Assembly: GCA_013297825.1 (NCBI GenBank)
Contig: JAAFIN010000001.1
Coordinates: 1 to 64,000 of the forward strand
DNA: 64,000 nt
Source: Cytophagales bacterium
GTDB taxonomy: Bacteria; Bacteroidota; Bacteroidia; Cytophagales; Microscillaceae
Direction: 5' to 3'
Positions 4,530-64,000 of the stretch are shown here, one piece after another (position 1 is the stretch's first letter; each line of letters starts with the position of its first letter). The notes beneath the pieces were generated by a model. It was given only the letters and a program-made list of their open reading frames with translations, had not been told where the DNA came from and did not search any database. The translations under genes were made by a program, and so were the position numbers.

Positions 4530-4576
4530 TATACCTTTAAACCTTGAACTTTAAACCTTAAACCTTGAACTTTTGA
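4530..4576. repeat. Repeat family B (CCTTGAACTTTAAA) before a start codon
   Basis: Several imperfect copies of AACCTTGAACTTTAAACCTT stand end to end and finish three bases before the ATG at 4580. The same family precedes or follows many other genes in this window. Confidence 0.75.
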
Positions 4577-7303: not shown

Positions 7304-8569
7304 ATGAGTGCAGAAAAAATAACTATCAAAAATGGTGCTTTACAAGTGCCTAATGAGCCTATTATTCCATTTATAGAAGGTGATGGCACAGGTGCTGATA
7401 TTTGGAAAGCATCTGTAAAAGTAATAGACGAAGCAGTAAAAAAAGCCTACAATGGCACAAAAAAAATTCATTGGAAAGAAGTGCTTGCTGGCGAAAAATC
7501 TTTTAATTTATCAGGAAATTGGATGCCTGAAGAAACGCTTACAGATTTTAGGGAATATCTTGTAGGTATCAAAGGGCCACTTACTACGCCTGTTGGTGGT
7601 GGTATTCGTTCTCTGAATGTAGCTTTGCGTCAAGAATTGGATTTGTACGCTTGTGTGCGTCCTGTACGTTGGTTTCAAGGCGTTCCCTCTCCTGTAAAAC
7701 AACCTGAACTTACTAATATGGTAATTTTTAGAGAAAATACAGAAGATATTTACGCAGGTATTGAGTACAAAACAGGAACTCCAGAAGCGGATAAAATGAT
7801 GAATTTTTTGCAAAATGAAATGGGTGTTAAAAAAATTCGTTTCCCAAAAACATCATCTATTGGCATCAAACCTGTTTCTATTGAAGGAACTGAACGCCTG
7901 GTAAGAAGTGCTTTAGAATATACCATTGCCAAAAAATTGCCTTCTTTGACCCTTGTGCATAAAGGAAATATTATGAAATTTACCGAAGGTGGTTTCAAAG
8001 ATTGGGGTTATGCCTTAGCAGAAAGAGAATTTGGCGACAAAGTTTTTACTTGGTTGCAATATGATGCCATCAAAGCCAAAGACGGACAAGTTGCTGCTGA
8101 TGAAGCCCTTGCAAATGCAGGAAAATCAGGTAAAGTAATTGTAAAAGATTCTATCGCTGATGCGTTTTTGCAACAAATTTTATTACGTCCAGCAGAATAT
8201 TCTGTGGTTGCAACCCTCAACTTAAATGGTGATTATATTTCTGATGCCCTTGCTGCGATAGTGGGCGGAATTGGCATTGCTCCAGGTGCAAATATCAATT
8301 ATATCACAGGACACGCAATTTTTGAGGCAACACACGGAACAGCTCCAAAATACGCAGGACAAGACAAGGTAAATCCTGGTTCAGTGATTTTGTCAGGTGC
8401 TTTGATGCTTGAATATTTGGGTTGGACAGAAGCATCAGACCTTATTTATAGCGGTTTGGAAAAAGCGATTGGAGGCAAAAAAGTTACTTATGATTTTCAC
8501 CGACTAATGGAGGGTGCTACTTTACTCAAATGCTCTGAATTTGGGGACGAAATTATTAAAAATATGTAA
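7304..8569 (+). CDS. icd: NADP-dependent isocitrate dehydrogenase
   Basis: A 421-residue homodimeric TCA-cycle enzyme that oxidatively decarboxylates isocitrate to 2-oxoglutarate. The sequence matches the E. coli Icd type along its length: [16 protein letters not shown] near the N-terminus, the substrate loop [16 protein letters not shown] with the phosphorylatable serine position at S103, [15 protein letters not shown], and [19 protein letters not shown] towards the C-terminus, which carries the cofactor region. The start is the first ATG after a run of As. A terminator follows at 8644. No regulator or kinase-phosphatase is adjacent. Confidence 0.96.
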
Positions 8570-8572
8570 TTT

Positions 8573-8635
8573 TAATGTTGAATGATAAATGTTGAATGAT
8601 AAATAAAACAGCCAAATTTCAATGTTGAATGATTA
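8573..8635. repeat. Repeat family A array after icd
   Basis: The stop codon of icd is followed within five bases by ATGTTGAATGATAAA units and then AAAACAGCCAAAT. This is family A in reverse orientation: the ATTCAACATT-type tail abuts the gene and the GGCTGTTT core is distal. Confidence 0.7.
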
Positions 8636-8751: not shown

Positions 8752-9948
8752 CTACAATTCTGCGAGGTTGTATTGGGTATTGTTTTTATTAGTTTGTAAT
8801 GCACATTTTATTAGTTCATAAGTTGGTTTTTGAATGAAAATATTACCCAAAATATTGTCTAATTTTTCTTTACTAACTTTTATTGCTTGTTCAGATTGGT
8901 CTATTCCTATCCAATTTCTACCCAAGTTTTGTGCAGATTTTAGGGTTGTTCCTGAACCACAAAAACAATCCAAAACATAGCTATTTGGATTTGAGGAGGT
9001 TTTAATAATCAAATCCAATAAATCTGCGTTTTTTTCTGTTGGGTATAATGGATATTGTGGGTCTTTCATTTCCCAAATATCCTGTACTCTTTTGCCTTCT
9101 TGTTCATCAAAATAGATTTTTTTGCGTGGATTTCCCTTTTCTGACCATTCAATTAAACCTTCATTATCCCATTTTTCTAAGGTTTCTACATTTGTTCGCC
9201 AATGTCTGCCTTTGGGCGGTAAAATTCCTTTAAAAGCCTGTGAAGTTTTTCCGTTTTGGGTTTCGCTTGGTGCGTGTAAAGGAATTGTTGTGTAACGCCT
9301 TTTATTTTTATCAATTTTTGGAAAAAGTTTAATTTTATCTTCTTCTGTGTATGCAGTTTTAGGTTCATTCCAAATCAATTTATCAGTTTTTGAATAAAAT
9401 AAAACCATATCTTTCATATTTCCGTAACCTTTGCGAGCAAAATTTTTAGGATTGCATTTTATACGTGTGATGTCATTTTTAAAATTTTCAATACCAAAAA
9501 TTTCGTCCATTATGATTTTTACATAATGCCCAATTTTATAATCAATATGCAAATAAATAGAACCCTGTTCTGACAAAAGCATTTTGAGCAAAACCAATCT
9601 TTCACGCAAAAACTCTAAAAAATCTGTACCTTGTAATTTATCTTTGTAAGCAATTTTATCATTTTTATTATTGCTAATTGTGCTTGTTCTTTCGTCTGAA
9701 AATGTAAAAGTGTTATTGGTTGCAAAAGGTGGGTCAATATAAACCAAATCAATTTTTCCTAATAAACCTTGTTTTTCTATCAAATTTTTAAGTACAAGCA
9801 AATTTTCACCAAAAATTAATTTATTTGGGCTTACTTCGTTATTTTGTGTAGCAAATTCACTATCAAGTATTTGATTATAAATTTCTGTTTCGGTTTTTTT
9901 GTGGGGATATTGTAAGAACATTGGTATTTTGTTTTTTGTAAAAGACAT
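8752..9948 (-). CDS. Type II DNA methyltransferase (beta-class N6-A or N4-C)
   Basis: The 398-residue protein transfers a methyl group from SAM to an exocyclic amino group in DNA. The catalytic motif DPPF (D72-F75) comes before the SAM-binding motif (D327-C-F-C-G-S-G-T-T), the order of beta-class enzymes. The insert between them (about 160-300) should hold the target-recognition region. Nine base pairs separate it from the upstream endonuclease gene, so the two form an R-M operon in which this enzyme protects the host DNA. Target base and site cannot be read from sequence alone. The start MSFTKNKIPM is the first ATG after the upstream stop. Confidence 0.9.
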   Translation of the reverse strand: MSFTKNKIPMFLQYPHKKTETEIYNQILDSEFATQNNEVSPNKLIFGENLLVLKNLIEKQGLLGKIDLVYIDPPFATNNTFTFSDERTSTISNNKNDKIAYKDKLQGTDFLEFLRERLVLLKMLLSEQGSIYLHIDYKIGHYVKIIMDEIFGIENFKNDITRIKCNPKNFARKGYGNMKDMVLFYSKTDKLIWNEPKTAYTEEDKIKLFPKIDKNKRRYTTIPLHAPSETQNGKTSQAFKGILPPKGRHWRTNVETLEKWDNEGLIEWSEKGNPRKKIYFDEQEGKRVQDIWEMKDPQYPLYPTEKNADLLDLIIKTSSNPNSYVLDCFCGSGTTLKSAQNLGRNWIGIDQSEQAIKVSKEKLDNILGNIFIQKPTYELIKCALQTNKNNTQYNLAEL

Positions 9949-9957
9949 ACAAAAATC

Positions 9958-10740
9958 TTAAAGTTGATATAAAAACTCTCTCAAAACTAAGGAACTCATA
10001 ATATTGTAATCCTTGTATTTGGTTGTAACATCTCTATACATTTTGTTGTTACCTTTGATGTAAAGCACACCATCAAGAATGGCTATTTTGATAGCTTTTA
10101 CATTTGGCGTTTCTAAGGTAGAAATAGCATCAGCAAATTGTGCGTTTTGGTGACCGCCAAAATCAGTCAAAAATTTACTTTCACCAATAACATACTGTTT
10201 ATTGAAACGTGCTACAAAATCAAGCCCTTTGTCACGTTTATAATTTAAAAATTGGCTACTAAAATTTGCTAATTCTTGGTCACTTCCATTCAAAATAGCA
10301 TCTTTGTCTGAACTTATAAATTCTTCTAATTCAACGGGTTGTATGCCTAATGGTTTTCTATTTAACCATCTACGAAAAAATGGCCCAATTTGTCTATTTG
10401 TTTCTTTTGGCTCTGTGCATTTCTCAAAAATCTTGTCAAGCCCCATTTCGTATAATCTTCCACAAATTCGGTTTATTGTTCTTGGATTTCGTTCTATGGA
10501 AGAAATATCACGTTTTAGAAAAGCAATGTAGCTGTCTTTTATTGGAAATAAATCTAATTTTAATAACTCTTTGAGGAGTAATTCATTATCTTGTTCTAAA
10601 AATGCTTGTTCTACGCTTTCCCAAGATGTTTGATTGATTTCTCTAATTCCTTCAGGAATTGTAGGATAAACATAGAACAAATCATCAAGATATGATTTTT
10701 GATTGGCATATTCAATGCTTAATGCTGTCCAATAATTCAT
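9958..10740 (-). CDS. Type II restriction endonuclease, PD-(D/E)XK type
   Basis: This 260-residue protein is the partner of the methyltransferase just downstream and should cleave unmethylated DNA at the same site. A PD-(D/E)XK-like core is visible: D174 in KGLDFVARF and E187-S-K189 in YVIGESKFL, the usual spacing of two adjacent strands. The N-terminal half is helical and may bind DNA or dimerise. The endonuclease gene comes first in the operon, which usually needs extra delay control after transfer; no controller (C) gene is seen. The assignment is based on the motif plus context. Confidence 0.82.
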   Translation of the reverse strand: MNYWTALSIEYANQKSYLDDLFYVYPTIPEGIREINQTSWESVEQAFLEQDNELLLKELLKLDLFPIKDSYIAFLKRDISSIERNPRTINRICGRLYEMGLDKIFEKCTEPKETNRQIGPFFRRWLNRKPLGIQPVELEEFISSDKDAILNGSDQELANFSSQFLNYKRDKGLDFVARFNKQYVIGESKFLTDFGGHQNAQFADAISTLETPNVKAIKIAILDGVLYIKGNNKMYRDVTTKYKDYNIMSSLVLREFLYQL

Positions 10741-10796
10741 AATAGTTTTTTCACAAAGTTAAAGTATTTTTTGGGTTTCTCAAATTGACATATAAT

Positions 10797-11750
10797 TTAT
10801 ATTACAAACATCTGCATTCCCCCCAAAATCAAATACATTGCAATCGTCCAAATCAACGAACAAAGTTCAAGTATTTTAGCCCAAAAGGCATTTTTTTTTG
10901 ATAAAAGCAAAAATGCAGGCAACAAACAAAGTAAAAAAATACAACCCAAAATCCACAATGAAATATTGCCTAATCCTGCAAAAATACTCGCCCCAATCGC
11001 ACAACCAAACGTCATAAAAAGCACAAAAATCCACAAAAAAATCGCATTTTTCATACCCAACATAGCACTATAAGTTAATACACCTTCCGCTTCTTGTGAA
11101 GGAATTCGGATTTTTCTGCCAATTTCTAAAACCAAACCATTAAAATAAGACACCAAAAAGAAAAAAAACAAACCAAAAGGCATATTTTTTATATCTAAAA
11201 ACCAATCTAATCCACTTACATAAATATCCACAATCGGAATAATCGCAATGTGTGAGATTACATAAAAAAATTGATTTTTTTTGAGCCAATTTTTTACAAA
11301 AAATTCCTTTCCCATCAAATACAAATATCCCATTACAAACACATACAAATAAAGCATTTTTGGAAAAAATAGTATTTGTAAAATAATTTGTAAAAAAATA
11401 ATCCCCACACCCAAATAAAATAATTCTGCCAAAGAAACCAATCCACGAGGCACAGGCAAGGATTTGCGAAACAAAATATCATCATCATTGTCTTTGTGTT
11501 CGTCAGATATACGAAGTAATAAAAATAAACTCATTGCCATAAAAACACCCATAAAATACGTATTCAACGAAACAAAATGCTTTTTTTGGGTGCAAATACA
11601 AGAATATGCAATGGCAGAAAAACTAAATGATGCAATCAAAATTCCGTGTAATAATACAGGAAAACGCTCTTTTTGGTACAAATAAAATCGCACAAAAATA
11701 TTTGCGTTATTTTCTGATATTTTGCTAAATTCGTTTTGATTTTTGGGCAT
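10797..11750 (-). CDS. UbiA-superfamily-like polytopic membrane protein
   Basis: A 317-residue integral membrane protein with about eight or nine hydrophobic helices. After the second helix it has RISDEHKDNDDD followed by RKSLPVPRGLV. This resembles the first Asp-rich motif of UbiA prenyltransferases, which bind prenyl diphosphate through Mg2+ and attach it to aromatic or other acceptors. The second Asp-rich motif is not obvious: VSGLDWFLDIKN (about residues 180-190) is a weak candidate. The acceptor cannot be inferred; no quinone or haem genes are nearby. A repeat array stands directly before its start. Confidence 0.6.
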   Translation of the reverse strand: MPKNQNEFSKISENNANIFVRFYLYQKERFPVLLHGILIASFSFSAIAYSCICTQKKHFVSLNTYFMGVFMAMSLFLLLRISDEHKDNDDDILFRKSLPVPRGLVSLAELFYLGVGIIFLQIILQILFFPKMLYLYVFVMGYLYLMGKEFFVKNWLKKNQFFYVISHIAIIPIVDIYVSGLDWFLDIKNMPFGLFFFFLVSYFNGLVLEIGRKIRIPSQEAEGVLTYSAMLGMKNAIFLWIFVLFMTFGCAIGASIFAGLGNISLWILGCIFLLCLLPAFLLLSKKNAFWAKILELCSLIWTIAMYLILGGMQMFVI

Positions 11751-11756
11751 TTGTGA

Positions 11757-11885
11757 AGGTATCAGGAAAAAGGTGTCAGGTATCAGGAAAAAGGTGTCAG
11801 GTATCAGGAAAAAGGTATCAGGTATCAGGAAAAAGGTGTCAGGTATCAGGAAAAAGGTGTCAGGAAAAAGGTGTCAGGTATCAGG
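11757..11885. repeat. 21-bp tandem repeat array (family C)
   Basis: Five nearly identical 21-bp units beginning AGGTATCAGG are followed by a 14-bp partial unit and a final 10-bp piece. One unit carries a G-to-A change. The unit length being a multiple of three creates an open frame encoding GIRKKVS repeats, but this is not considered a gene. The array starts six bases upstream of the minus-strand start codon at 11750. Confidence 0.9.
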
Positions 11886-11984
11886 AATAAATACAAGTTT
11901 TATTTTTGAAAAAAAGAAAATTACATTTATTTTGGTATAATTTGTTAATCTTTTTTTAAATTACAAAAAAAAAGGCTAAGTTTT

Positions 11985-12015
11985 TTGAGATTACATTTTT
12001 AAAATTTTAAATTTG
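11985..12015 (+). promoter_or_regulatory. Candidate promoter of DUF1573 lipoprotein gene
   Basis: TTG at 11985-11987 and TAAATTTG at 12008-12015, separated by 20 bp, match the Bacteroidota TTG / TAnnTTTG consensus. The start codon lies about 50 bp downstream. Confidence 0.55.
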
Positions 12016-12065
12016 CATAAAATTTCTTAAAAGAACATTAAAAAACACATTTCTTTTTTACAAAT

Positions 12066-12632
12066 ATGAATAAAGTATTGCTTAATACCACTAAAATATT
12101 GCTTTTTGCAGGTATTTTTGGACTAAATATCGCTTGTCAAAATAACAAAGGAGGAGAGGCTTCTGCTGATAAAAAACTTGGTGCAGAAACAAATGTTTCA
12201 CTCAAAAATAACAAAGCAAGCGCAGAAAATCAAGTACAAGATAACAAACAACCTGCTTCAGATATTCCTACACCTGCCAAAGGCGAAGAACCTGCATTTA
12301 AGTTTGAAACCATAGAACACAATTTTGGTCAAATCAAAGAGGGTCAAATTGTAAAACACACCTTCAAATTTAAAAATATAGGCAAAAGCCCGCTTGTGAT
12401 TAAAGATGCTACCGCAACTTGTGGTTGTACTGTACCAAAAAAACCACAAAACCCAATCGCTCCAGGTGGTGATGGTGAGATAGAAGTAGAATTTAATAGT
12501 AGTGGAAAAAGTGGTGTGCAAGAAAAAGACATCACAGTTACTGCTAATACCATTCCTGCAGAAACCAAACTAAAAATCAAAGGAACTGTTGATAATATTT
12601 CACAAATGCAAGGACCTTTGCAAAAGAAATAA
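12066..12632 (+). CDS. DUF1573 lipoprotein
   Basis: The 188-residue product has a hydrophobic signal followed by a lipobox-like NIAC (Cys about residue 24), so it is probably a lipoprotein. A low-complexity linker rich in Lys, Ala and Gln (about 25-75) leads into a DUF1573 domain (about 80-180). Its hallmarks are FETIEHNFGQIKEGQ, TFKFKNIGKSPLVI, the cysteine motif TCGCTVP and the repeated-strand ending. The fold is immunoglobulin-like and of unknown function. A second DUF1573 protein without lipobox is at 27892-28317. Confidence 0.88.
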   Translation: MNKVLLNTTKILLFAGIFGLNIACQNNKGGEASADKKLGAETNVSLKNNKASAENQVQDNKQPASDIPTPAKGEEPAFKFETIEHNFGQIKEGQIVKHTFKFKNIGKSPLVIKDATATCGCTVPKKPQNPIAPGGDGEIEVEFNSSGKSGVQEKDITVTANTIPAETKLKIKGTVDNISQMQGPLQKK

Positions 12633-12636
12633 ATTT

Positions 12637-12780
12637 AATGGTAAATGGTAAATGAAACAGCCAAATCAGAGCAGGATTTTTAGGATTGAATACAGATTTA
12701 CAGGATTAAATACAAAAAAAAATCAGTAAATAATGCGTGAAAAATAAACTAATACAAATTTTCACAGATTTTTTTTTAAA
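12637..12780. repeat. Repeat families A and E
   Basis: GGTAAATGGTAAATGAAACAGCC (reversed family A) follows the stop codon almost directly. It is followed by family E sequence containing TACAGATTTACAGGATTAAA and TTTTCACAGATTTTTTTT. Nothing else is visible in the gap. Confidence 0.6.
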
Positions 12781-21336: not shown

Positions 21337-21540
21337 ATTAAATTTGACTGTTTCATTCATAATTTATAATTCATCATTCATCATTAAATTTGGCTGTTTC
21401 ATTCCTAATTCTTAATTCCTAATTTTTAATTGAATTTGAATTTGGCTGTTTCATTCCTAATTCTTAATTCCTAATTCTTAATTGAATTTGAATTTGACTG
21501 TTTCATTTACCATTCACAATTTACCATTCACCATTAAAAA
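21337..21540. repeat. Four-unit family A array before an ABC permease gene
   Basis: GACTGTTTCATTC or GGCTGTTTCATTC occurs four times at about 40-60 bp spacing (near 21347, 21390, 21443 and 21497), each followed by CATAATT, CTAATTC or CCATTCAC tails. The array ends with CCATTCACCATTAAAA right at the start codon at 21543. Confidence 0.85.
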
Positions 21541-21542
21541 AA

Positions 21543-22796
21543 ATGTTTGACTTAGACAAATGGCAAGAGATATTTGCCACAATGCAAAAAAATAAATTAC
21601 GCACATTTCTCACAGCTTTTGGTGTTTTTTGGGGAATATTTATGCTTGTAATGTTATTGGGAGCAGGGCGAGGAATGCAAAATGGCGTAGAAAAAGAATT
21701 TAGTGAAGAAGCCAAAAATGCTTTTTGGGTATGGTCTTACAAAACTTCTATTCCTTCACACGGACTAAAAGCTGGTCGTAATATCCAATTTAATAACCAA
21801 GATTTGGAGGCAATTAAAACCAAAATAGAAAATAGTGATATTGTAACACCTCGTAATAACCTAAGAGGCGAATATGTCATAAAATACAAAGATAAAAATG
21901 GAGCTTTTAGGGTAATGGGCGGAACAGGCGATTTTATGACCATCAATGGCGAAAAACTTAATAAAGGCAGACTTCTAAATGATACTGATAACAAAGAACG
22001 CAGAAAAATTATTGTATTGGGAGAACGTGCTAAAAATGTGATTTTTGGAAAAGATATTGATGCAATAGGTAAATATGTAGATGTAAAAGGTGTTTATTTT
22101 CAAGTGGTTGGTATTTATAATTCCAAAGAAAACGGTGGTAGAAATGAAGAACGTGCTTATATCCCTTTTTCTACAATGCAAAATACTTTTGGACAACTTA
22201 ACCAAGTGCAACTTATTGGGCTTACAAGTAAAAATAACGCAAATTTTGAACAAATAACCCAAGAAATCAAAACGGTGCTTGCCTCCCAACATAAATTTGA
22301 CCCAAAAGATACGCAAGCAGTTGGTATAAATAGCAACGAGGAACAAGTAAAACGCTTTTTAGGCTTGTTTTCTGCGATACGTACTTTTGTGTGGGTGGTT
22401 GGATTGGGTACGCTTATTGCTGGAATTGTGGGTGTGAGCAATATTATGCTTATCATTGTAAAAGAACGCACTAAGGAAATAGGCGTAAGAAAAGCACTTG
22501 GGGCTACACCAATTTCAGTTGTAAGTATGATTTTGCAGGAATCTATCGCAATAACTGCTTTTTCAGGTTATTTGGGTCTAATGGCTGGTGCAGGATTGTT
22601 GAGTTTGTTGGAGTGGTTGGTGGAAATGGTAGAAGAACAGGGGGGAAGTGTGCCTTATTTTTATCGTCCTGAAATTGATTTAGGTGTTGCAGTAAGTGCA
22701 ATTTTTTTATTAGTGTTAGCTGGTGCGATTGCTGGGCTTGTTCCTGCAATGAAAGCTGCATATATTAAACCAATAGAAGCATTGAGAGCGGACTAA
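21543..22796 (+). CDS. MacB/FtsX-type ABC transporter permease
   Basis: A 417-residue permease. An N-terminal helix (about 20-42, FGVFWGIFMLVMLLG) is followed by a periplasmic MacB-like domain (about 50-265). The C-terminal FtsX module has three helices at about 280-305, 332-362 and 380-405, with the cytoplasmic KERTKEIGVRKALGATP motif. Such proteins work with an ATPase and an adaptor to export peptides, lipoproteins or drugs mechanically. No ATPase gene is next to it here; the neighbour downstream is ruvX. It may belong to a system encoded elsewhere. Confidence 0.88.
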   Translation: MFDLDKWQEIFATMQKNKLRTFLTAFGVFWGIFMLVMLLGAGRGMQNGVEKEFSEEAKNAFWVWSYKTSIPSHGLKAGRNIQFNNQDLEAIKTKIENSDIVTPRNNLRGEYVIKYKDKNGAFRVMGGTGDFMTINGEKLNKGRLLNDTDNKERRKIIVLGERAKNVIFGKDIDAIGKYVDVKGVYFQVVGIYNSKENGGRNEERAYIPFSTMQNTFGQLNQVQLIGLTSKNNANFEQITQEIKTVLASQHKFDPKDTQAVGINSNEEQVKRFLGLFSAIRTFVWVVGLGTLIAGIVGVSNIMLIIVKERTKEIGVRKALGATPISVVSMILQESIAITAFSGYLGLMAGAGLLSLLEWLVEMVEEQGGSVPYFYRPEIDLGVAVSAIFLLVLAGAIAGLVPAMKAAYIKPIEALRAD

Positions 22797-23010
22797 GAAA
22801 TGATAAATGATAAATGTTAAATGATAAATGGAATAGCCAAATACAAAACAGCCAGATTCTTTCAGAATGACACATTTATTTGTTTTTTTGAATTTTTAAA
22901 CTTTGAACATTTGTATTGGCTGTTTCATTCATCATTTAACATTCATCATTCAACATTGAAATTTGGCTGTTTCATTCATCATTTAACATTTATCATTCAA
23001 CATTAAAAAA
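22797..23010. repeat. Opposed family A arrays between ABC permease and ruvX
   Basis: Just after the stop codon are four ATGATAAATGATAAATG-type units ending in GAATAGCCAAA and ACAGCC (reverse orientation). From 22915 two forward units follow, GGCTGTTTCATTCATCATTT, whose ATTCAACATT tails run to the ruvX start. The two genes are thus each bordered by the tail of the repeat. Confidence 0.85.
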
Positions 23011-23442: not shown

Positions 23443-23541
23443 AAAGTTCCAAAAAGGCTTAAAAAATGGTTCAAAAAGCTCAAAATATTTTTTAATTGAA
23501 CTTTTTGAACCTTAAACTTTGAACCTTAAACTTTAAACTTC
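23443..23541. repeat. Family B array between convergent genes
   Basis: AAAGTTCC, AAGGCTTAAAAAATGGTTC and AAAAAGCTCAAAATA are followed by the inverse form TTGAACCTTAAACTTTGAACC, up to the stop codon of the cyclophilin gene. The two orientations could form a long imperfect hairpin and may also act as a terminator. Confidence 0.7.
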
Positions 23542-23979
23542 TTAAACCTCACTCACTACAATTTTCTCAATTTTATCGCCTTGACGAATTAAATCAATTA
23601 CTTCCAAACCTTCTACTACACGACCAAAACAAGTATGATTGCGGTCTAAATGTCCTGTATTATCTCTGCTGTGGCAAATAAAAAACTGTGAACTTCCTGT
23701 ATTTCTGCCTGCGTGAGCCATAGAAAGTACGCCTCTGTCGTGATATTGGTTACCACCTGTGAGTTCGCAATTTATTTTGTAACCTGCTCCACCTGTTCCT
23801 GTGCCATAAGGGCAACCTGCTTGTACCACAAAATTAGGAATTACACGATGAAAAGTAAGTCCATCATAAAATCCTTTTTGCGACAAACCCACAAAATTTG
23901 CTACGGTGTTAGGTGCATCTTCTGCATAAAATTCTACTTTCATCACGCCTTTTGACGTGTGTATTTCTGCTATTTGCAT
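23542..23979 (-). CDS. ppiB: Cyclophilin-type peptidyl-prolyl isomerase
   Basis: A 145-residue single-domain cyclophilin accelerating prolyl cis-trans isomerisation. Recognisable are NTVANFVGLSQKGFYDGLTFHRVI with the catalytic-type Arg (in FHRV), QAGCPYGTGTGG, SMAHAGRNTGSSQFFI and HLDRNHTCFGRVVEG. No signal peptide is present, so it should be cytoplasmic. Convergent with ruvX. Confidence 0.94.
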   Translation of the reverse strand: MQIAEIHTSKGVMKVEFYAEDAPNTVANFVGLSQKGFYDGLTFHRVIPNFVVQAGCPYGTGTGGAGYKINCELTGGNQYHDRGVLSMAHAGRNTGSSQFFICHSRDNTGHLDRNHTCFGRVVEGLEVIDLIRQGDKIEKIVVSEV

Positions 23980-25331: not shown

Positions 25332-26951
25332 ATGACACTCCCTTTCGCAGACACAAAAGCATTTTCAAATATTTTTTTGGATTACATCAATAAAGACGAA
25401 TTTCTAAAAGATTTTTATGATAAATACCCAAATATAGAAAATTTTATTTTGCAAATAGAACAAAAAAAAGATTTTTCGCAGGAAAATAGAAATATTTTGG
25501 TAAATTCTCTCAAAAATCAATACGAACAACTCCAAAAAGCACAACCTGATACAAACATTCAAAATGCTGTAACGCAAAACATAGAAAATCTTGCATTGTC
25601 TAATACTTTTACGGTTACAACAGGTCATCAACTTACGTTTTTGGGAAGTCCTGCGTATTTTGTGTATAAAATTCTAACCACCATAAAACTTGCCCAACAA
25701 CTCAAAACGCAATATCCTGAATATAATTTTGTGCCTATTTATTGGCTTGCTTCGGAAGACCACGATTTTGAGGAAGTAAATCACACCTATTTATTTGGCA
25801 AAAAATATACTTGGAATACTGCACAAAGCGGAGCTGTGGGGGATTTTGAGATGCGAGATTTAGAAAATGTTTTTGGAGAAATGCCTCAAAATTTGCCTGA
25901 ATTATTTACAAAAATAAAAAAAATTTATCTTAATTCGCCTAATTTGAGCGTTGCAACACGTATTTTGGTAAATGAATGGTTTGGAGAATTTGGTTTGCTT
26001 TCTTTGGACGCAAACGAAAAAAATTTGAAAGAAATTTTTAAACCTGTGATGCAAAAAGATATTTTTGAACATAATATTTTTGAAACTGTCAAAAAAACAA
26101 CCGAAAAATTTGCCCAAAAATACAAACCACAAATCAATCCACGAGAAATTAACTTTTTTTATTTGGGGAAAAATGATAAAAACGAGAATTTTAGGGAAAG
26201 ATTTGTAAATAGTATAAATATGGAAAATCCTTTTGGACAATCTCGTATAAATTATGCTGTTTTAAACCAAAATATTATTTTTAGTAAAGAAAAACTAAAT
26301 GAAGAAATCAATAATTTTCCTGAAAAATTTTCGCCTAATGTGGTTTTAAGACCACTTTATCAGGAGCAGATTTTGCCTAATATTGCCTACATTGGAGGCC
26401 CTGGCGAGCTTGCGTATTGGTTGCAACTCAAAGATATGTTTGTAGAAAATAATACACCGTTTCCGATATTGATGCCACGCAATTTTGCTACAATTTTTCC
26501 AAAAAATGCCATTCAAAAATTAGAAAAAATGAATTTATTGTCCAAAGATTTATTTTTGGAAGAAATAGACCTCAAAAAAAGATTTTTGCAACAAAAAGCT
26601 GAAAATATCGCTAATATCAATGCAGAGAAACAACAAATTGAACAGGCTTTTAACCAAATAAACCAAAAAACCGAACTTTTGGACAAATCTCTTGTTGCGT
26701 GGGCAGGAGCAGAGCAACAAAAAATTTGGAAAATATTTGAAAATATTGAAAAACGCTTAGAAAAAACAGAAGAAACACGTTCAGAAACCGAAATTAAACA
26801 GCTTTTTGCAATGCGTGATAAAATTATGCCAGAAGGTACTTTACAAGAACGTAAAGAAAGTTTCCTTAGTTTTTGGCTTAATAATCCAAACTTTTTGCAG
26901 GAAATTTATGAAAAAATTGACATTTTTTGCTTTGAAATGATGATTTTTTAA
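25332..26951 (+). CDS. bshC: Bacillithiol biosynthesis cysteine-adding enzyme
   Basis: The 539-residue protein adds L-cysteine to glucosaminyl-malate, the last step of bacillithiol synthesis. It matches BshC in length and in TTGHQLTFLGSPAYFVYK, PIYWLASEDHDFEEVNH, LRPLYQEQILPNIAYIGGPGELAYW and the C-terminal coiled coil (about 430-500). The ATG at 25332 is chosen because an earlier frame start lies inside a repeat element. BshA and BshB are not in the window. Presence of this gene implies bacillithiol as the low-molecular-weight thiol. Confidence 0.93.
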   Translation: MTLPFADTKAFSNIFLDYINKDEFLKDFYDKYPNIENFILQIEQKKDFSQENRNILVNSLKNQYEQLQKAQPDTNIQNAVTQNIENLALSNTFTVTTGHQLTFLGSPAYFVYKILTTIKLAQQLKTQYPEYNFVPIYWLASEDHDFEEVNHTYLFGKKYTWNTAQSGAVGDFEMRDLENVFGEMPQNLPELFTKIKKIYLNSPNLSVATRILVNEWFGEFGLLSLDANEKNLKEIFKPVMQKDIFEHNIFETVKKTTEKFAQKYKPQINPREINFFYLGKNDKNENFRERFVNSINMENPFGQSRINYAVLNQNIIFSKEKLNEEINNFPEKFSPNVVLRPLYQEQILPNIAYIGGPGELAYWLQLKDMFVENNTPFPILMPRNFATIFPKNAIQKLEKMNLLSKDLFLEEIDLKKRFLQQKAENIANINAEKQQIEQAFNQINQKTELLDKSLVAWAGAEQQKIWKIFENIEKRLEKTEETRSETEIKQLFAMRDKIMPEGTLQERKESFLSFWLNNPNFLQEIYEKIDIFCFEMMIF

Positions 26952-27084
26952 TGTTAAATGATAAATGTTGAATGATAAATGAAACAGCCAACAGCCTTTT
27001 AACTGGCTGTTTTGTATTTACCTTTCCCCTTACTACTTACACCTTTCCCCTAATAAAAATTCCCCTTTGGGGGTTAGGGGGCTT
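26952..27084. repeat. Adjacent family A, C and D repeats
   Basis: Reversed family A units (ATGTTAAATGATAAATG to GAAACAGCC) start at the bshC stop codon, then GGCTGTTTTG (27005). Family C CTTTCCCCTTACTACTTAC (27022-27052) and a family D element TCCCCTTTGGGGGTTAGGGG (27061-27080) follow. The D element touches the stop of the next gene. Confidence 0.75.
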
Positions 27085-27623: not shown

Positions 27624-27785
27624 AAAAGTTTAAGGTTTAAAAAGTTTAAAAAGTTCAAAAAGTTCAAAAGTTCAAAAGTTCAAAAGTTCAAAAAGTTTAA
27701 GAAAAAAATCCTGTTAATCTTAAAATCCTGAAAATCCTGCTTCAGACTTTGGCTGTTTCATTTATAATTTATCATTCACAAAAGT
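27624..27785. repeat. Family B, E and A repeats
   Basis: GTTTAAGGTTTAAAAAGTTT and GTTCAAAAGTTCAAAAG units (27628-27700) are followed by AATCCTGTTAATCTTAAAAT (family E type) and GGCTGTTTCATTTATAATTT (family A, 27751). Nothing else is seen in the gap. Confidence 0.7.
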
Positions 27786-31544: not shown

Positions 31545-31618
31545 TTATTTGAACTTTTTTGAACCTTAAACCTTGAACCTTAAACTTTTTTGAACCTTAA
31601 ACCTTGAACCTTAAACTT
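31545..31618. repeat. Family B array next to glnN stop
   Basis: GAACCTTAAACCTTGAACC units and TTGAACTTTTTTGAACC run up to the stop codon of the minus-strand glnN. Confidence 0.75.
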
Positions 31619-33811
31619 TTATCGCACCATCAGCAACTCACGATATTTTGGCAAAGTCCAATCTTCGTCATCAATAATAAGTTCCAATTTATCCACGCTG
31701 TAACGAATTACATCAAAATATTTTTTCACTTGTTCCTCATAAGCAATTGCTCTTTCAAACGCATTTTCAATTTTGTTGGCGGTTTTGCGAGCTTCAATCA
31801 TTTCCTCAGTATTTTGTTGGATAAGGTTGATATGTTCCGAAATATTGGTAATGGCATCAACTATGGTTTTTACGCTTGCATTTTTTTCCAAACCTATTTC
31901 TTTCAAACCTTTTACATTTTGGATAAGTTTGTTTTGATACACGATTGCAGAAGGAATTACGTGATTAAGTGCCAAATCATTCATTACACGTGCTTCAATT
32001 TGTACTTTTTTGATGTAATTTTCCAAATTGATTTCATAACGAGCTTCCACTTCACGATGCGACATAATGCCCAATTCTTCAAATAAATGCAAAGATTTAT
32101 CAGAAATATATGCTTGTAATGCTCTTGGCGAAGATTTTACATTTGGAAGACCACGTTTTTCTGCTTCTATTACCCATTCTTCAGAATAATTATCACCTTC
32201 AAACAAAATATTTTTGCTTTCTGTAATGTATCTTCTCAATACATTTACAATCGCATATTCTCTTTTTTCAAGGCTTTCAGCTTCTTTATCCACATCTTTG
32301 CGGAATTGAATAAGTTGTTTTGCAACAATAGCGTTCAAAACCACCATAGGGGCAGCACAATTCGCAGAACTTCCCACCGCCCTAAACTCAAATTTATTGC
32401 CTGTAAATGCAAATGGTGATGTACGATTGCGGTCTGTGGTATCCAAAATAATAGCTGGCACTTTGTTAATGCCCATTTTCATATAAAGATTATCGCCTTT
32501 TTCAAGTGCGATGGTTGCATTTTTTTCCAATTCTTCCAAAACCCTTTTTAGTTCCGCTCCCACAAAAACCGAAATAATCGCAGGAGGTGCTTCATTTGCT
32601 CCAAGTCTGTAATCATTGCCTGCTGACGCAATACTCGCCCTCAAAAGGTCGGAATATGCGTGAACTGCTTTAATAGTATTAACAAAAAATGACAAAAATT
32701 GCAAATTTTCTTTTGGTTTGGAAGTAGGAGCAAGGAGGTTTTTTCCTGTGTCAGTTCCTAACGCCCAGTTATTATGTTTTCCACTTCCATTGATACCAGC
32801 AAAAGGTTTTTCGTGAAAAAGAATTTTGAAATTGTGTTTTTCCGCTACTTTTTCCATCACGTCCATTAGCAGAATATTGTGGTCAACCGCCAAATTTAAT
32901 TCTTCAAAAGTAGGGGCACACTCAAATTGTGCAGGAGCAACTTCATTATGACGTGTACGAATTGGAATACCTAATTTTTGTGCTTCAATCTCAAAATCCA
33001 CCATAAAAGCCTTCACACGTGTAGGAATTGACCCAAAATAATGGTCTTCTAATTGTTGTCCTTTTGCTGGTGCGTGTCCAAATACGGTTTTTCCTGCCAT
33101 CATCAAGTCAGGTCTTGCATAATAAAGTGCCTTATCCACCAAAAAATATTCTTGTTCAGGGCCTAAAGTCGCAATTACTTTTTTGACGTCTTTGTCAAAT
33201 AATTCACAAACCGCAACAGATGCTTTATCTACTGCAGAAATTGCTTTGAGAAGTGGCGTTTTATAATCCAATGCTTCCCCTGTGTAAGATACAAAAATGG
33301 TAGGAATACAAAGCGTTTTTCCTGCTTGTGTTTCCATAATAAAAGCAGGCGAAGTAACGTCCCACGCAGTATAACCTCTTGCCTCAAATGTAGCACGAAT
33401 TCCACCACTTGGGAAAGAAGATGCATCAGGTTCTTGTTGTGCTAAGGCACTTCCTTTAAATTTTTCTATGGCGTTTCCTTTTGAATCAATATCATAAAAC
33501 GCATCATGTTTTTCAGCAGTAGAGCCTGTAAGCGGTTGAAACCAGTGTGTATAATGTGTTACGCCTTTGTTCATAGCCCAATTACGCATACCATTGGCTA
33601 CTGCATCAGCGAGTTCATTGTCTATTTTTCCGCCCTGTTCCAACACGCCCAAAAATTTTTTGAAAGTATCAGCACTTAGGTATTCTTTCATAGCTTTTTC
33701 GCTAAAAACATTTATACCAAAGTAATCTGAAATTTTGTTAGCAGGAAGAATAGGAGAAACAACATCACGGTTTTGTGCTTGTTCTACTGCTTTAAATCTA
33801 AGAATTGCCAT
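31619..33811 (-). CDS. glnN: Glutamine synthetase type III
   Basis: A 730-residue GSIII enzyme that makes glutamine from glutamate, ammonia and ATP; GSIII is common in Bacteroidota and cyanobacteria. Characteristic pieces are WFQPLTGSTAEKHDAF, the glutamate/ATP segment TLGPEQEYFLVD, ARHNEVAPAQFE-like TRHNEVAPAQFECAP, HEKPFAGINGSGKHNNWAL and DRNRTSPFAFTGNKFE. Length is typical of the type. It is likely a homododecamer and monocistronic. Confidence 0.96.
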   Translation of the reverse strand: MAILRFKAVEQAQNRDVVSPILPANKISDYFGINVFSEKAMKEYLSADTFKKFLGVLEQGGKIDNELADAVANGMRNWAMNKGVTHYTHWFQPLTGSTAEKHDAFYDIDSKGNAIEKFKGSALAQQEPDASSFPSGGIRATFEARGYTAWDVTSPAFIMETQAGKTLCIPTIFVSYTGEALDYKTPLLKAISAVDKASVAVCELFDKDVKKVIATLGPEQEYFLVDKALYYARPDLMMAGKTVFGHAPAKGQQLEDHYFGSIPTRVKAFMVDFEIEAQKLGIPIRTRHNEVAPAQFECAPTFEELNLAVDHNILLMDVMEKVAEKHNFKILFHEKPFAGINGSGKHNNWALGTDTGKNLLAPTSKPKENLQFLSFFVNTIKAVHAYSDLLRASIASAGNDYRLGANEAPPAIISVFVGAELKRVLEELEKNATIALEKGDNLYMKMGINKVPAIILDTTDRNRTSPFAFTGNKFEFRAVGSSANCAAPMVVLNAIVAKQLIQFRKDVDKEAESLEKREYAIVNVLRRYITESKNILFEGDNYSEEWVIEAEKRGLPNVKSSPRALQAYISDKSLHLFEELGIMSHREVEARYEINLENYIKKVQIEARVMNDLALNHVIPSAIVYQNKLIQNVKGLKEIGLEKNASVKTIVDAITNISEHINLIQQNTEEMIEARKTANKIENAFERAIAYEEQVKKYFDVIRYSVDKLELIIDDEDWTLPKYRELLMVR

Positions 33812-40399: not shown

Positions 40400-42040
40400 T
40401 TATTTATTCAAAAAAATAACCCCTGACATAATGTGCATACAAGCACCTTGTTTGATACCGTGTTTGCGGTGATACGCACAAGTACAAGACGCAAATTTTA
40501 TTCTGCCTTCTGCATCAAGTTGGATTTTTGGCAAGAATACATTTTTACCTTGTACCTCAAAACTATATTCTGTGATAGCATTTTCCAATGGTTTTTGGGC
40601 GGTACATTTTACTTTATTTTCGCCTACAAGTTCAGTAGCATATTTCAGTCTTTCGTCTTGTTCTGTTGGTGTGATTTTTATTTCTTGTTCCAATAATTTT
40701 CTCCAACGATAAATCTGTAAAATATGGTCATACATTGCTTGTCCATTTTTTACAAGCGTTTGGAGCGTAAAAGTAGCGTCCATTTGCGAAATATTCATTA
40801 TTTCAGCAAGTTGTGCAGGTGTAAGCGTGAGGTGTTCCATTAGTTTTTGATACACCTTATTTAAGTCAATATTGCCTTGATTTTTGGTTTTTGCAGAAGC
40901 CAAAAGGTCAAAATTACCTTTTTTAGACCAATCATTCGCAGTCCAACCAGAAAGACCAATATCAAATCTATGACCTTCTACTTCCACCGACCAATATGAA
41001 GGCATACCTGTTCCCAAAAGTTTTACTTGTACTTTTTCGGTATAAGGCAATAAATCTTTTAAAACCTGTAATCTTCTTCTTCCCCAAATGCGAATTTCGC
41101 CATCAGTTTCACCATTATAAATATTACTGTCTATAATTTCAATGCCCCAAGGGTCAATTACGAGTTTTTGAGGTTTTCCTTTTTCCAACACAAACCTAAT
41201 AGAACGTGGGCTACTTTTTTCACGTCTGCGGGCTATTTCGCCCAATACTTGTGCGAGGGTTTGGCTATCAATGGTGATATTTGTGCCTTCTATTGTGGAA
41301 GCAGACTGCACTTGAAGAAAACCTTGTACCCAAGAAGGCGGAAGGTCAATTTTTTTCTCCACATTTTCGCCTACATCAGTAGAAAGTGCAACTTGTTCAA
41401 AGGCAACTTTGAGCCACGCAGGGCGATAACTTCTTACTCTTGAAAGTTCATTTGCGAGGTTTTGGCTAAAATCAATATTGGTTGTGCCATATTTTACATC
41501 ATCAAATATTTCTAATAATTGCGTTGGCACGCTTACTCTGCCATAACTTGATTCGTCCAATGAAAATGCCTCAAAAATAACTGCATCTTTATGTACGCTA
41601 ATTACAGGGTCAAGCACCATCCATTTATCTTTGTCGTGTTTGTAAAGCCATTGATAATATTTATAGCGTGCTTCATCTACTTTCTTTTGAAGTGGAGCAA
41701 TTTCTTTTTTAACATTGCGTTGTTGTTGGCGTAAAACCTCTCTACGTTGCAATAATTGCACTTTTTTAGCTTCAATATTTTGAAGATGAGCAGGAAGTTC
41801 TTTGATATATTCACCCATTACCCAATCTTGATAAGCGGTGTTATCTTTTTGAGTTGGACGTTCATCATTTGTAACTACTTTTCTCAAAGCAAGCATTACC
41901 CTTGCGTAGCCAAGACTATTTTTGATAAGGGCATTCAGTGATACAGGAGGGCGATTAAGTTCAGCAGAAAAATTAAAACCCATTCCTTTTGCATCTTGTT
42001 GTGCAAAACTTGGGCGAGCGTATTGTTGGGTAAGTTGCAT
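40400..42040 (-). CDS. SWIM zinc-finger protein
   Basis: This 546-residue protein carries at its C-terminus the SWIM signature CTCAYHRKHGIKQGACMH (CxC...CxH, about 515-532), a zinc finger that binds DNA or proteins. The remainder has a coiled-coil segment (about 90-130, IEAKKVQLLQRREVLRQQQR) and mixed regions with no motif known to me. SWIM proteins in bacteria often sit beside MoxR/VWA genes, but none is seen here. Upstream is a family A repeat directly at its start codon. Confidence 0.75.
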   Translation of the reverse strand: MQLTQQYARPSFAQQDAKGMGFNFSAELNRPPVSLNALIKNSLGYARVMLALRKVVTNDERPTQKDNTAYQDWVMGEYIKELPAHLQNIEAKKVQLLQRREVLRQQQRNVKKEIAPLQKKVDEARYKYYQWLYKHDKDKWMVLDPVISVHKDAVIFEAFSLDESSYGRVSVPTQLLEIFDDVKYGTTNIDFSQNLANELSRVRSYRPAWLKVAFEQVALSTDVGENVEKKIDLPPSWVQGFLQVQSASTIEGTNITIDSQTLAQVLGEIARRREKSSPRSIRFVLEKGKPQKLVIDPWGIEIIDSNIYNGETDGEIRIWGRRRLQVLKDLLPYTEKVQVKLLGTGMPSYWSVEVEGHRFDIGLSGWTANDWSKKGNFDLLASAKTKNQGNIDLNKVYQKLMEHLTLTPAQLAEIMNISQMDATFTLQTLVKNGQAMYDHILQIYRWRKLLEQEIKITPTEQDERLKYATELVGENKVKCTAQKPLENAITEYSFEVQGKNVFLPKIQLDAEGRIKFASCTCAYHRKHGIKQGACMHIMSGVIFLNK

Positions 42041-42042
42041 CG

Positions 42043-42085
42043 TTAATTATGAATTAGGAATTAAGAATTAGGAATGAAACAGCTT
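42043..42085. repeat. Family A unit upstream of the SWIM gene
   Basis: AATTATGAATTAGGAATTAA and GGAATGAAACAGC are reversed family A, with the tail adjoining the minus-strand start codon at 42040. Confidence 0.65.
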
Positions 42086-47630: not shown

Positions 47631-48863
47631 ATGAAAATAGGATTTTTTGGCTTTGGCTGTGTGGGTCAGGGCTTGTATGACATTCTCACAAAAACGAATT
47701 TTAATGCAGAAGTTATTAAAATTTGTGTGAAAAATAAGGAAAAACAACGCAGTATTCCAAGCGAAATATTTACGTTTGATAAATGGGAAATACTGAACAA
47801 TCCAAGTATTGACCTTGTGGTTGAAATGATAGATGATGCCAAAGAAGCATACCAAATCGTAAAATATGCCCTCCAAAATGGTAAAAATGTGGTAACTGCT
47901 AATAAAAAAATGTTAGCAGAAAATTTGGTGGAGTTTCTTGAAATTCAAGAAAAATTTGGTACTGCATTGCTTTATGAAGCCTCTGCTTGTGGCAGTATTC
48001 CCATTATTCGCAATTTGGAAGAATATTATGATAATGAACTTTTGGGCAATGTGCAGGGGATTTTTAATGGGTCGTCTAATTATATTTTATCCAAAATATT
48101 TCAAGAAAAAATGCCTTACGAAACCGCCCTTGCACAAGCTCAAGCATTAGGTTTTGCAGAAAGCAATCCAATATTAGACGTAGGAGGTTTTGATGCGAAG
48201 TACAAACTTTGTATTATCACTGCACACGCTTATGGATTGTGCATTGCTCCAAATGAAGTTTTTAATTATGGTATTCAGAATTTTTCGGAATATGATTTGA
48301 AATTTGCACAAGAAAAAAATCTCAAAATTAAGCTCATTGCAAGCGTTGGCAAAATCTCTGAAAACGAAATTTCGCTTTCTGTAATGCCTCAATTTATTCA
48401 CCCAAAACACGAATTGTATTATGTAGAAAATGAATATAATGGCGTGATTGTGGAAGCTGGTTTTTCGGACAAACAGATTTTTGTGGGAAAAGGTGCAGGC
48501 GGACACCCAACAGGTTCTGCGGTGCTTTCTGACATTTCTGCAATTTCGTATCAATATAAATATGAGTACAAAAAACGCCAAAAACGCCTTCCTTTGCGAT
48601 ATGTGAAGCACCAAATATTAGAGATTTATGTGCGTTATCACCAAGACGAAGATTTGAAAGGCTTAGATTTTCAAGAAATTAGCGAAAAATACGAGGGCAG
48701 AGAAAGCAAATATCTTATTGGGACAATTAGCTTAGAAAATCTTTTCCAGCTTCAAAATGTATTACCTGAACGCAATATTTTTATTGTAAATACAGGGCGA
48801 AAAGTGATACAAAATTTGTTTCAATTAGCCCAAACCGAAAAACAAAATTTGGCAACTGCTTAA
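47631..48863 (+). CDS. hom: Homoserine dehydrogenase
   Basis: The 410-residue enzyme reduces aspartate semialdehyde to homoserine, feeding metX. The N-terminal NAD(P) motif is GFFGFGCVGQGL (about 4-15). VVTANKKMLAE, YEASACGSIPIIRNL and GIFNGSSNYIL mark the catalytic domain, followed by ALGFAESNPILDVGGFDAKYK with the catalytic acid/base residues. The last about 90 residues may form an ACT-like regulatory part. It is a monofunctional form, not fused to aspartokinase. Third gene of the SAM-regulated operon. Confidence 0.93.
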   Translation: MKIGFFGFGCVGQGLYDILTKTNFNAEVIKICVKNKEKQRSIPSEIFTFDKWEILNNPSIDLVVEMIDDAKEAYQIVKYALQNGKNVVTANKKMLAENLVEFLEIQEKFGTALLYEASACGSIPIIRNLEEYYDNELLGNVQGIFNGSSNYILSKIFQEKMPYETALAQAQALGFAESNPILDVGGFDAKYKLCIITAHAYGLCIAPNEVFNYGIQNFSEYDLKFAQEKNLKIKLIASVGKISENEISLSVMPQFIHPKHELYYVENEYNGVIVEAGFSDKQIFVGKGAGGHPTGSAVLSDISAISYQYKYEYKKRQKRLPLRYVKHQILEIYVRYHQDEDLKGLDFQEISEKYEGRESKYLIGTISLENLFQLQNVLPERNIFIVNTGRKVIQNLFQLAQTEKQNLATA

Positions 48864-49020
48864 AAAGTTCAAAAGTTTAAGGTTCAAAAAGTTCAAAGTT
48901 TAAGGTTCAAAAAGTTCAAAGTTTAAGGTTCAAAATTATTTTCCTTATTCCTGACTTCTGATTACTTTTAAATAAAACTGCATTTTTTTTCAAAAAAATA
49001 ATAATAGATAAGACAAAATA
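48864..49020. repeat. Family B array after hom
   Basis: AAAAAGTTCAAAAGTTTAAG and three copies of GTTCAAAGTTTAAGGTTCAA follow the hom stop codon; the remainder is AT-rich. Confidence 0.75.
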
Positions 49021-55723: not shown

Positions 55724-55730
55724 GAAATTA

Positions 55731-55874
55731 ATGTTAAATGGTGAATGGTAAATGGTAAATGAAACAGCCATATCATCAATAACAAATAAAAGTTGAAAAC
55801 TCAAAATACAATTATTTTGAATTTTCAACTTTATTTTTTTAAACCTTGAACTTTAAACCTTAAACTTTTCCCCC
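55731..55874. repeat. Family A then family B repeat between porV and an O-methyltransferase
   Basis: ATGTTAAATGGTGAATGGTA and AATGAAACAGCC (reversed A) follow porV; a hairpin AAAGTTGAAAACTCAAAATA/TTTTGAATTTTCAACTTT (55792-55832) stands next, and AACCTTGAACTTTAAACC (B) runs into the TTG start at 55875. Confidence 0.75.
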
Positions 55875-57523: not shown

Positions 57524-57740
57524 GGTTTAAGGTTTAAAGTTTAAGGTTTAAAGTTTAAGGTTTAAAGTTCAAGGTTTAAAGTTCAAGGTTCAAAAAGTTC
57601 AAGGTTCAAAAAGTTCAAAAAGTTCAAAAATTTAATTTGTATTTAATCCTGCCAATCTTATAATCCTCTAATCCTGCTCTTATTTGGCTGTTTATTCATA
57701 ATTCATAATTTATAATTCATAATTCATCATTAAAATCGCT
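57524..57740. repeat. Family B, E and A repeats between divergent prmC and rsmA
   Basis: GTTTAAAGTTCAAGGTTTAA units begin directly at the prmC start codon (57527-57632). AATCCTGCCAATCTTATAAT (E type) and GGCTGTTTATTCATAATTC (A, 57683) follow. The remaining bases to 57856 are AT-rich and hold the rsmA promoter presumably. Confidence 0.75.
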
Positions 57741-60870: not shown

Positions 60871-60886
60871 TCGGTTGTCTAACAAG

Positions 60887-63401: not shown

Positions 63402-63443
63402 TTTGGCTGTTTCATTCATCATTTAACATTTATCATTCAACAT
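63402..63443. repeat. Family A unit next to the DUF58 gene stop
   Basis: TTGGCTGTTTCATTCATCAT and TTAACATTTATCATTCAACA end at the stop codon of the minus-strand DUF58 gene. Confidence 0.75.
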
Positions 63444-64000
63444 TTATTTCATTTTCTGTCTTTTGGTCATATACGCATACAAAACTTGTTCAAAAGTTTG
63501 GGCAATATCTACTTCAATCAAATCAATTTTATATTGGGCGCATTTTATTTTGAGGTTTTGAAAATGATTTTGGCGTTGTGATTGATAATATTGTTGAATT
63601 TGGTCAGGTTGAAGTCGCACTTTTTCACCTGTTTCTACGTCAGCAAAAATATGAGGACGATTTTCAAATACCAAATTATCTTCGGTTTTGGCATCTCTAA
63701 TATGAAAAAACAAAACTTCGTGTTTGTTGTGTTTTAAATGTTGCAAGGCAGAAAAAATTTCTTCGTGTTTTTCTACATTTTCAAGCATATCACTTAGGAT
63801 AATCACAAGACTACGTTTATGTATTTTTTCAGCAATTTGGTCAAGGTTATGAGCGAGGTTTGTTTTTTGGTTTTTGGATTGTGTTTTATTTGCCAAAACC
63901 TGTTCCAATAAGGTAAAAATTTTGTATAAATGTGCAACCGTTGATTTGGTTTGCGTTTGTACTTGAATTTCGGTATCAAACGTACAAAGGCTAAAAGCAT
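63444..64000 (-). CDS. DUF58 domain protein (C-terminal part; runs off window)
   Basis: The frame continues past the right edge; about 185 C-terminal residues are visible. It reads FSLCTFDTEIQVQTKSTVAHLYKI at the edge and then KRSLVIILSDMLEN, EVLFFHIRDAKTED and FADVETGEKVRLQPDQI. These match DUF58 proteins, which contain a von Willebrand A-like fold and usually stand beside MoxR ATPase genes. An internal TTG at 63908 is not the true start. Function: probably a chaperone-like assembly system with MoxR. Confidence 0.8.
   Translation of the reverse strand, partial: AFSLCTFDTEIQVQTQTKSTVAHLYKIFTLLEQVLANKTQSKNQKTNLAHNLDQIAEKIHKRSLVIILSDMLENVEKHEEIFSALQHLKHNKHEVLFFHIRDAKTEDNLVFENRPHIFADVETGEKVRLQPDQIQQYYQSQRQNHFQNLKIKCAQYKIDLIEVDIAQTFEQVLYAYMTKRQKMK

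What the first reader, a model, noticed from the sequence alone, without database searches (positions are those of the whole stretch)
21337..23010. Family A repeats: polarised units whose tails abut gene ends
GGCTGTTTCAT followed by CATTYA-type short repeats occurs at about ten loci (8573, 12637, 21337, 22797, 22915, 26952, 27751, 42043, 55731, 57683, 63402). In nearly all cases the low-complexity tail touches a start or stop codon and the GGCTG core is distal, whichever strand the gene is on. This consistent polarity is unlike random intergenic repeats and suggests that the gene edge is a boundary for repeat growth or insertion.
Basis: seen in the sequence. Interest (0 to 1): 0.75.

Follow-up and report, generated by a model that had tools for sequence, protein, structure and literature searches.

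The report
Polarised heptamer caps at gene edges
In this AT-rich Bacteroidota genome hundreds of genes are bordered, right beside their stop or start codon, by short seven-base repeat arrays that nearly always point the same way away from the gene, so something about the ends of protein-coding sequences decides where and which way round this repeat DNA sits.

Summary
The 12-mer GGCTGTTTCATT occurs 592 times in the 5.06 Mb genome (reversed control 0). I examined 1.89 Mb (37%). The unit is a GGCTGTTTC core plus about four degenerate heptamers. In 203 of 258 usable arrays the heptamer end lies within 20 nt of a CDS edge; the core end does so in 2. Orientation is almost absolute: 342 heptamer arrays read outward from a CDS edge, 3 inward; random placement gives 58 and 57. 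Position is sharp: a first array begins before the stop or 0-9 nt after it at 240 of 876 stop edges, and at 10-19 nt at 3.

Caps sit inside UTRs: promoter-like motifs and, at 23 of 144 stops, non-repeat terminators lie beyond them. A second heptamer family (GTTYAAR) obeys the same rule. TAACATT arrays show lineage-specific polarity in Cytophagales and Ignavibacteria.

Repeat 'growth' is not supported here (length peaks at four units). I favour end-specific insertion of short dispersed repeats at CDS borders. How the border is recognised is unknown. Nearest published case: TAACTGA heptamers (PMC4679880). New variant of a known kind.

The parts
8574..8613 (-). cap after stop of 7304-8569(+, isocitrate/isopropylmalate dehydrogenase family): heptamers then variant core (GGCTGTTTTAT)
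12637..12662 (-). cap after stop of 12066-12632(+, DUF1573): short heptamer tail + exact core
21346..21536 (+). four tandem core+tail units; last tail ends about 7 nt before ATG at 21543 (MacB/FtsX-type permease)
22798..22838 (-). cap after stop of 21543-22796(+): heptamers then variant core (GGCTATTCCAT)
22918..23004 (+). two tandem core+tail units before ATG at 23014 (RuvX)
26949..26989 (-). cap overlapping the TAA stop of 25332-26951(+, BshC): four heptamers + exact core
27751..27783 (+). core + short tail not touching a CDS; lies upstream of a promoter-like TATTTTTG before 27892
42043..42084 (-). cap next to the start codon of 40400-42040(-): AATTARG-type heptamers + AGCTGTTTCAT
55730..55769 (-). 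cap 6 nt after stop of 54503-55723(+, PorV family)
57686..57731 (+). variant core (GGCTGTTTATT) + five heptamers not touching a CDS; lies upstream of promoter-like TAGTTTTG before 57857
63405..63447 (+). core + four heptamers abutting and overlapping the stop (at 63444) of 63444-63788(-)
4536..4573 (-). second heptamer family (GTTYAAR) reading outward from the start codon at 4580(+)
23504..23538 (-). GTTYAAR array at the stop (23542) of 23542-23979(-)
31558..31616 (-). GTTYAAR array at the stop (31619) of 31619-33811(-)
48862..48935 (+). GTTYAAR array after the stop of 47631-48863(+)

Best explanation
These are short dispersed repeats (unit about 46 bp: about four degenerate heptamers AATKNTR or AATTARG, then an AAACAGCC core, then a short linker) that were added to UTRs directly at CDS borders, always by the heptamer end. 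Shown: the position at the codon edge, the near-absolute outward polarity, the typical unit length, the presence of promoter-like motifs and some terminators beyond the cap, and the shared behaviour of a second heptamer family. Inferred: each cap arose by an insertion or copy-and-join event within the spacer, in which the heptamer end is the joining end (often sharing the AA of TAA with the stop codon), and copies in other places or orientations were not made or not kept. One contributing selective reason at stops is that the outward array closes all three reading frames within about 18 nt, so insertion into the last codons or across the stop is tolerated. Gene-edge recognition itself is unexplained.
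For: Outward:inward 342:3 of 447 arrays (null 58:57). Distances: stop edges 152 overlapping + 88 at 0-9 nt, 3 at 10-19 nt, of 876; start edges 90 at 0-9 nt, 12 at 10-19 nt, of 935. Unit length peaks at 4 heptamers, 181 of 374. Tandem copies of the core+tail unit exist, up to 7 per array. Beyond the cap: non-repeat terminators at 23 of 144 cap+core stops against 140 of 623 uncapped; promoter-oriented CAAAnnTA exceeds the opposite motif beyond 195 start caps as it does upstream of 740 uncapped starts. Capping of the two ends of one tandem spacer is associated (odds ratio 3.9, p 1.6e-11), more than the two ends of one gene (1.6, p 0.008), pointing to a spacer-level event. The -2 phase (tail sharing AA of TAA) is the commonest: 77 of the 190 TAA-ending stops with a cap. 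Capped proteins reach their profile ends where a full-length family matched, e.g. BshC 538 of 539, OAH sulfhydrylase 431 of 441.
Against: No empty site was seen: no other genome of the genus was found among those searched, so insertion is inferred. Target-site duplications are not evident: shared words across junctions average 3.77 against 3.57 shuffled, with 2 of 200 shuffles reaching it. No transposase is tied to the family. Random insertion plus removal by selection does not by itself explain why almost no array lies 10-60 nt from a stop, where insertion should be harmless. Native TAG/TGA stops are capped at 11-14% against 20% for TAA, a difference that is not significant (p 0.12), so a TAA sequence target is neither established nor excluded.
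Confidence: 0.4

Rival explanations
1. Selected punctuation: the caps have a function at the RNA level. After the stop they supply stop codons in all frames and a C-free, probably unstructured 3' UTR; before the start they give a G-free leader. Proximity and orientation are kept by selection.
For: All three frames close within 18 nt (median, n=224) against 69 uncapped (n=770) and 52 for the same caps flipped in silico (n=209). The array itself supplies the stop codon in 70 of 262 capped stops. 2912 of 3068 AATNNNN-array heptamers contain a stop. No cap was seen at the ends of 20 tRNA genes (by eye).
Against: GTTYAAR arrays at stops are not enriched for stop-containing heptamers (146 TTT to 126 TTC at stops, 204 to 130 at starts). 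TAACATT and its reverse complement both contain TAA when repeated, yet polarity is fixed and opposite in Cytophagales (9:0) and Ignavibacteria (1:7). The same-gene association is weak. A general survey found no compelling evidence for selection of extra stops in eubacteria (PMC6764699, abstract and outline read).
Confidence: 0.22
2. MITE-like elements: heptamer arrays are the terminal inverted ends of insertion elements that fill spacers, so outward orientation at both sides is automatic.
For: Both-capped tandem spacers 92 against 52 expected of 664; inverted arrangement at the two ends of many spacers.
Against: The families at the two ends are nearly independent (29 same-family against 25.6 expected of 92 both-capped tandem spacers). 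Single caps lie next to retained non-repeat terminators, so one cap is not half of a spacer-filling element. No clear target-site duplication.
Confidence: 0.15
3. Slippage growth of heptamers seeded at stop codons or leaders.
For: Heptamer arrays are adjacent to codons; long uniform arrays exist in same-family genomes and some long arrays in this one (examples).
Against: Unit number peaks at four with a core at the distal end; the same core follows both AATKNTR and AATTARG tails (276 and 63 of 628 intergenic AACAGCC sites); 46-bp composite units are duplicated as a whole.
Confidence: 0.1

Closest known systems
TAACTGA heptamer direct repeats of Beggiatoaceae, Cyanobacteria and some Bacteroidetes (MacGregor 2015, PMC4679880; abstract, outline and passages read)
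   Same: Seven-base repeats in spacers, mostly within a few nt of a start codon in one orientation, sometimes overlapping stops; stop codons in all three frames; patchy spread across phyla; a translational role was suggested.
   Different: Here the heptamers are degenerate, occur in several families, are followed by a conserved AAACAGCC core, and cap stops more often than starts.
STRR heptamers and very small mobile repeats of cyanobacteria (recalled; not read)
   Same: Heptamers in spacers, with small repeats associated with them.
   Different: Gene-edge polarity was not checked in those sources; unit and core sequences differ as far as recalled.
REP/BIME repeats with RAYT transposases (PMC3733652 and PMC2817692 seen as search listings only)
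   Same: Hundreds of short extragenic copies.
   Different: REPs are palindromes tagged GTAG/CGTC; the cap has a heptamer tail and no such tag. This genome has its own GTAG-type array beside a RAYT-like gene, apart from the caps.

Membership tests
TAACTGA-type heptamer repeats | Tandem 7-nt units in spacers | tested here: met
   Lag 7 only: arrays at 208 of 1176 stop edges against at most 13 for lags 5, 6, 8-11
TAACTGA-type heptamer repeats | Unit TAACTGA | tested here: not met
   Units are AATKNTR/AATTARG and GTTYAAR
TAACTGA-type heptamer repeats | Fixed orientation near the start codon | tested here: met
   95 outward, 0 inward within 15 nt of 1064 start edges
MITE | Matching terminal inverted repeats | tested here: not met
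   End families nearly independent, 29 same against 25.6 expected
MITE | Target-site duplication | tested here: inconclusive
   3.77 against 3.57 shuffled, 2 of 200
MITE | Autonomous partner transposase with the same ends | not tested
   Only Y1_Tnp and RVT_1 were searched for
REP/RAYT | Imperfect palindrome tagged GTAG or CGTC | tested here: not met
   The unit read in printed copies has heptamers + AAACAGCC and no such tag (by eye)
Simple-sequence (slippage) array | Open-ended unit number | tested here: not met
   Peak at 4 units, 181 of 374

The most novel reading that the evidence does not exclude
The repeats are delivered to the physical border of translation. The end of ribosome-covered mRNA (for example the edge of an R-loop or of exposed single-stranded DNA in the UTR) marks where a short repeat is joined by its heptamer end, so genes are bordered on both sides by outward-pointing repeats, in several phyla with lineage-specific polarity.
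Probability: 0.15. Interest if true: 0.9.

Novelty: new variant of a known kind. Interest (0 to 1): 0.66.

Why it matters
Spacer repeats in bacteria are usually treated as loosely placed. A repeat class that sits within 0-9 nt of CDS borders with near-absolute polarity, on both sides of genes and in several sequence families, demands either a targeting process that senses coding ends or strong unnoticed selection on UTRs. Both can be tested by comparing strains.

Tried and rejected
Sequence target TTTAA: T-richness before the stop is not raised in caps that share TAA (T 33% against 41% in uncapped, position before TAA), although start-side caps do carry T-runs outward (poly-A leaders in 24 of 101 capped against 137 of 963 other starts, p 0.018). 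DNA-uptake-sequence idea: rejected because only 3 of 290 arrays lie inside genes. Arrays truncating genes and thereby creating apparent stop edges: disfavoured because profiles reach the C-terminus in the capped proteins where a full-length family matched (4 of the 10 stop-in-array proteins had no family at the cut-off, and some others matched only in part). 'Arrays cap promoters': 11 of 47 interior arrays facing a start have a promoter-oriented motif, so this explains a minority. Known RNA: one Rfam hit in the window, a SAM riboswitch, unrelated. A left-right asymmetry in convergent spacers (B-a 10, a-B 0) is unexplained and may be chance. The three inward arrays were not inspected one by one.

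Full report
What was checked. The window is the first 64 kb of a 5.06 Mb, 362-contig genome. GGCTGTTTCAT has 9 exact window matches (expected 0.04), and GGCTGTTTCATT 592 genome matches against 0 for the reversed pattern. I read 120 further stretches, which with the window make 1.89 Mb at 31% GC. The first 20 stretches came mostly from contigs already listed as carrying the element; the other 100 were taken by contig number. Genes were called with my own ORF and codon-usage caller (1380 genes, 75% coding). Gene starts are therefore approximate, stops exact.

Anatomy. 374 loose core matches were found, 340 with at least one heptamer; the number of heptamers peaks at four (181 of 374). Commonest tail units are ATTTACC, ATTTATC, ATTCAAC, ATTCACC, ATTCCTA and ATTCATA, that is AATKNTR or AATTARG when read from the other strand. 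Of 290 arrays, 251 are single, 33 double, and the longest has seven units. The core motif also serves as a joint between other spacer repeats: of 628 intergenic AACAGCC sites, 339 follow an A-type heptamer, 6 another heptamer type and 283 none.

Position and polarity. Of 258 usable arrays (3 in genes and 29 without a gene on one side were dropped from 290), the tail lies within 20 nt of a CDS edge in 203 and the core in 2. Arrays of two or more units: 342 outward, 3 inward, 102 neither, of 447; the same arrays placed at random in their spacers give 58 and 57. Arrays of three or more units: 208 outward at stops, 88 outward at starts, 0 inward only, 3 touching both edges, 65 interior, 25 interior near contig ends, 1 in a gene, of 390. 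Of 876 stop edges with a spacer of 100 nt or more, 152 have the array beginning before the stop codon ends, 88 at 0-9 nt and 3 at 10-19 nt; of 935 start edges 90 and 12 at 0-9 and 10-19 nt. A pattern-free measure agrees: lag-7 identity is 0.51 in the first 10 nt after 994 stops and 0.37 from about 40 nt on, and lag 7 is the only period that stands out.

Other families. GTTYAAR arrays: 114 outward at starts, 91 outward at stops, 2 inward at stops, 82 interior, 17 near contig ends, 10 both, 3 in genes, of 319. About 38% of stop edges (398 of 1056) and 21% of start edges (223 of 1060) carry one of four heptamer-type caps.

Caps lie in UTRs. In 740 uncapped starts the promoter-like motif TAnnTTTG (recalled Bacteroidota -7 box), pointing at the gene, peaks 20-80 nt upstream (75, 80, 73 per 20-nt bin against 20-30 for the opposite orientation). 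In 195 capped starts it lies beyond the cap (6, 9, 17, 15, 13, 12 against 3, 2, 4, 6, 4, 1). At 144 stops with cap and core, 23 have a non-repeat hairpin with T-run beyond the cap, against 140 of 623 uncapped. Twenty tRNA genes printed with their flanks show no cap at either end (by eye); tRNA ends often carry their own terminator, so this is a weak control.

Stop codons. Of 262 A-capped stops the stop codon lies inside the array in 70; of the other 192, 77 share the AA of TAA with the array. Frames close within 18 nt (capped) against 69 nt (uncapped), and 52 nt if the caps are flipped. Where full-length families matched, proteins are complete: OAH sulfhydrylase to residue 431 of 441 (profile 418/418), BshC to 538 of 539, isocitrate/isopropylmalate dehydrogenase to 417 of 421.

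Spacer or gene. Start and stop capping are associated within the same tandem spacer (odds ratio 3.9, p 1.6e-11) more than within the same gene (1.6, p 0.008); the spacer association holds in three length classes. The families at both ends are nearly independent (29 same against 25.6 expected). Shared permissiveness of a neighbourhood could also produce the association.

Elsewhere. The core+tail pattern is confined to this genome among 296 phylum genomes. AATKNTR arrays occur in 4 of 15 family genomes, mostly in genus g3. TAACATT arrays were found in 116 stretches of GTDB genomes, 80 given as loci, from Ignavibacteria, Cytophagales, cyanobacteria, Colwellia and others. Of 88 arrays in these 80 loci, polarity within 25 nt of stops was: Cytophagales 9 TAACATT-outward to 0; Ignavibacteria 1 to 7; cyanobacteria 2 to 0; Gammaproteobacteria 0 to 1; remaining taxa 2 to 4. 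Many arrays are interior (45 of 88), and start-side polarity is mixed in the cyanobacteria (4 to 2).

Reading. The mechanism is not: no empty site was available. End-specific insertion of short dispersed repeats at CDS borders fits best. Selection alone does not explain the gap at 10-60 nt; a MITE model does not explain single caps beside retained terminators or the independent ends; growth does not explain the typical four-unit length with a core. Literature searches found the TAACTGA paper as the nearest case and no description of this repeat in the open-access library held; subscription papers and preprints were not searchable.

Noticed in passing
window 60887-61141: A perfect 127-bp tandem duplication that breaks a reading frame (60866-61021 / 61011-61721); the length equals a common assembler k-mer (recalled), so it may be an assembly artefact.
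   Followed up: no
window 44433-44545: SAM riboswitch about 450 nt upstream of an O-acetylhomoserine sulfhydrylase gene whose stop codon lies inside a heptamer cap.
   Followed up: partly
L133 294-932 and downstream: RAYT-like Y1 transposase gene followed by an array of GTAG-tagged palindromes (ACACACTTTTAGTGTGT), resembling a classical REP system and separate from the caps.
   Followed up: partly
many spacers, e.g. window 22850-22870: Palindromic spacer repeats GATTCTTTCAGAATGACA and ATTGCTACGCAATGACA joined by AACAGCC/GGCTGTT, plus AGGATT-type repeats, make up mosaic spacers with a recurring order outward from genes.
   Followed up: partly
L098, reverse-strand ORF 9864-12290 (coordinates counted on the reverse complement): An 808-aa reverse-transcriptase-domain protein whose gene ends at an AATTAGG cap; no link to the repeats was tested.
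   Followed up: no
convergent spacers: GTTYAAR left / AATKNTR right 10 times, the reverse 0 times, although contig strand should be arbitrary.
   Followed up: no
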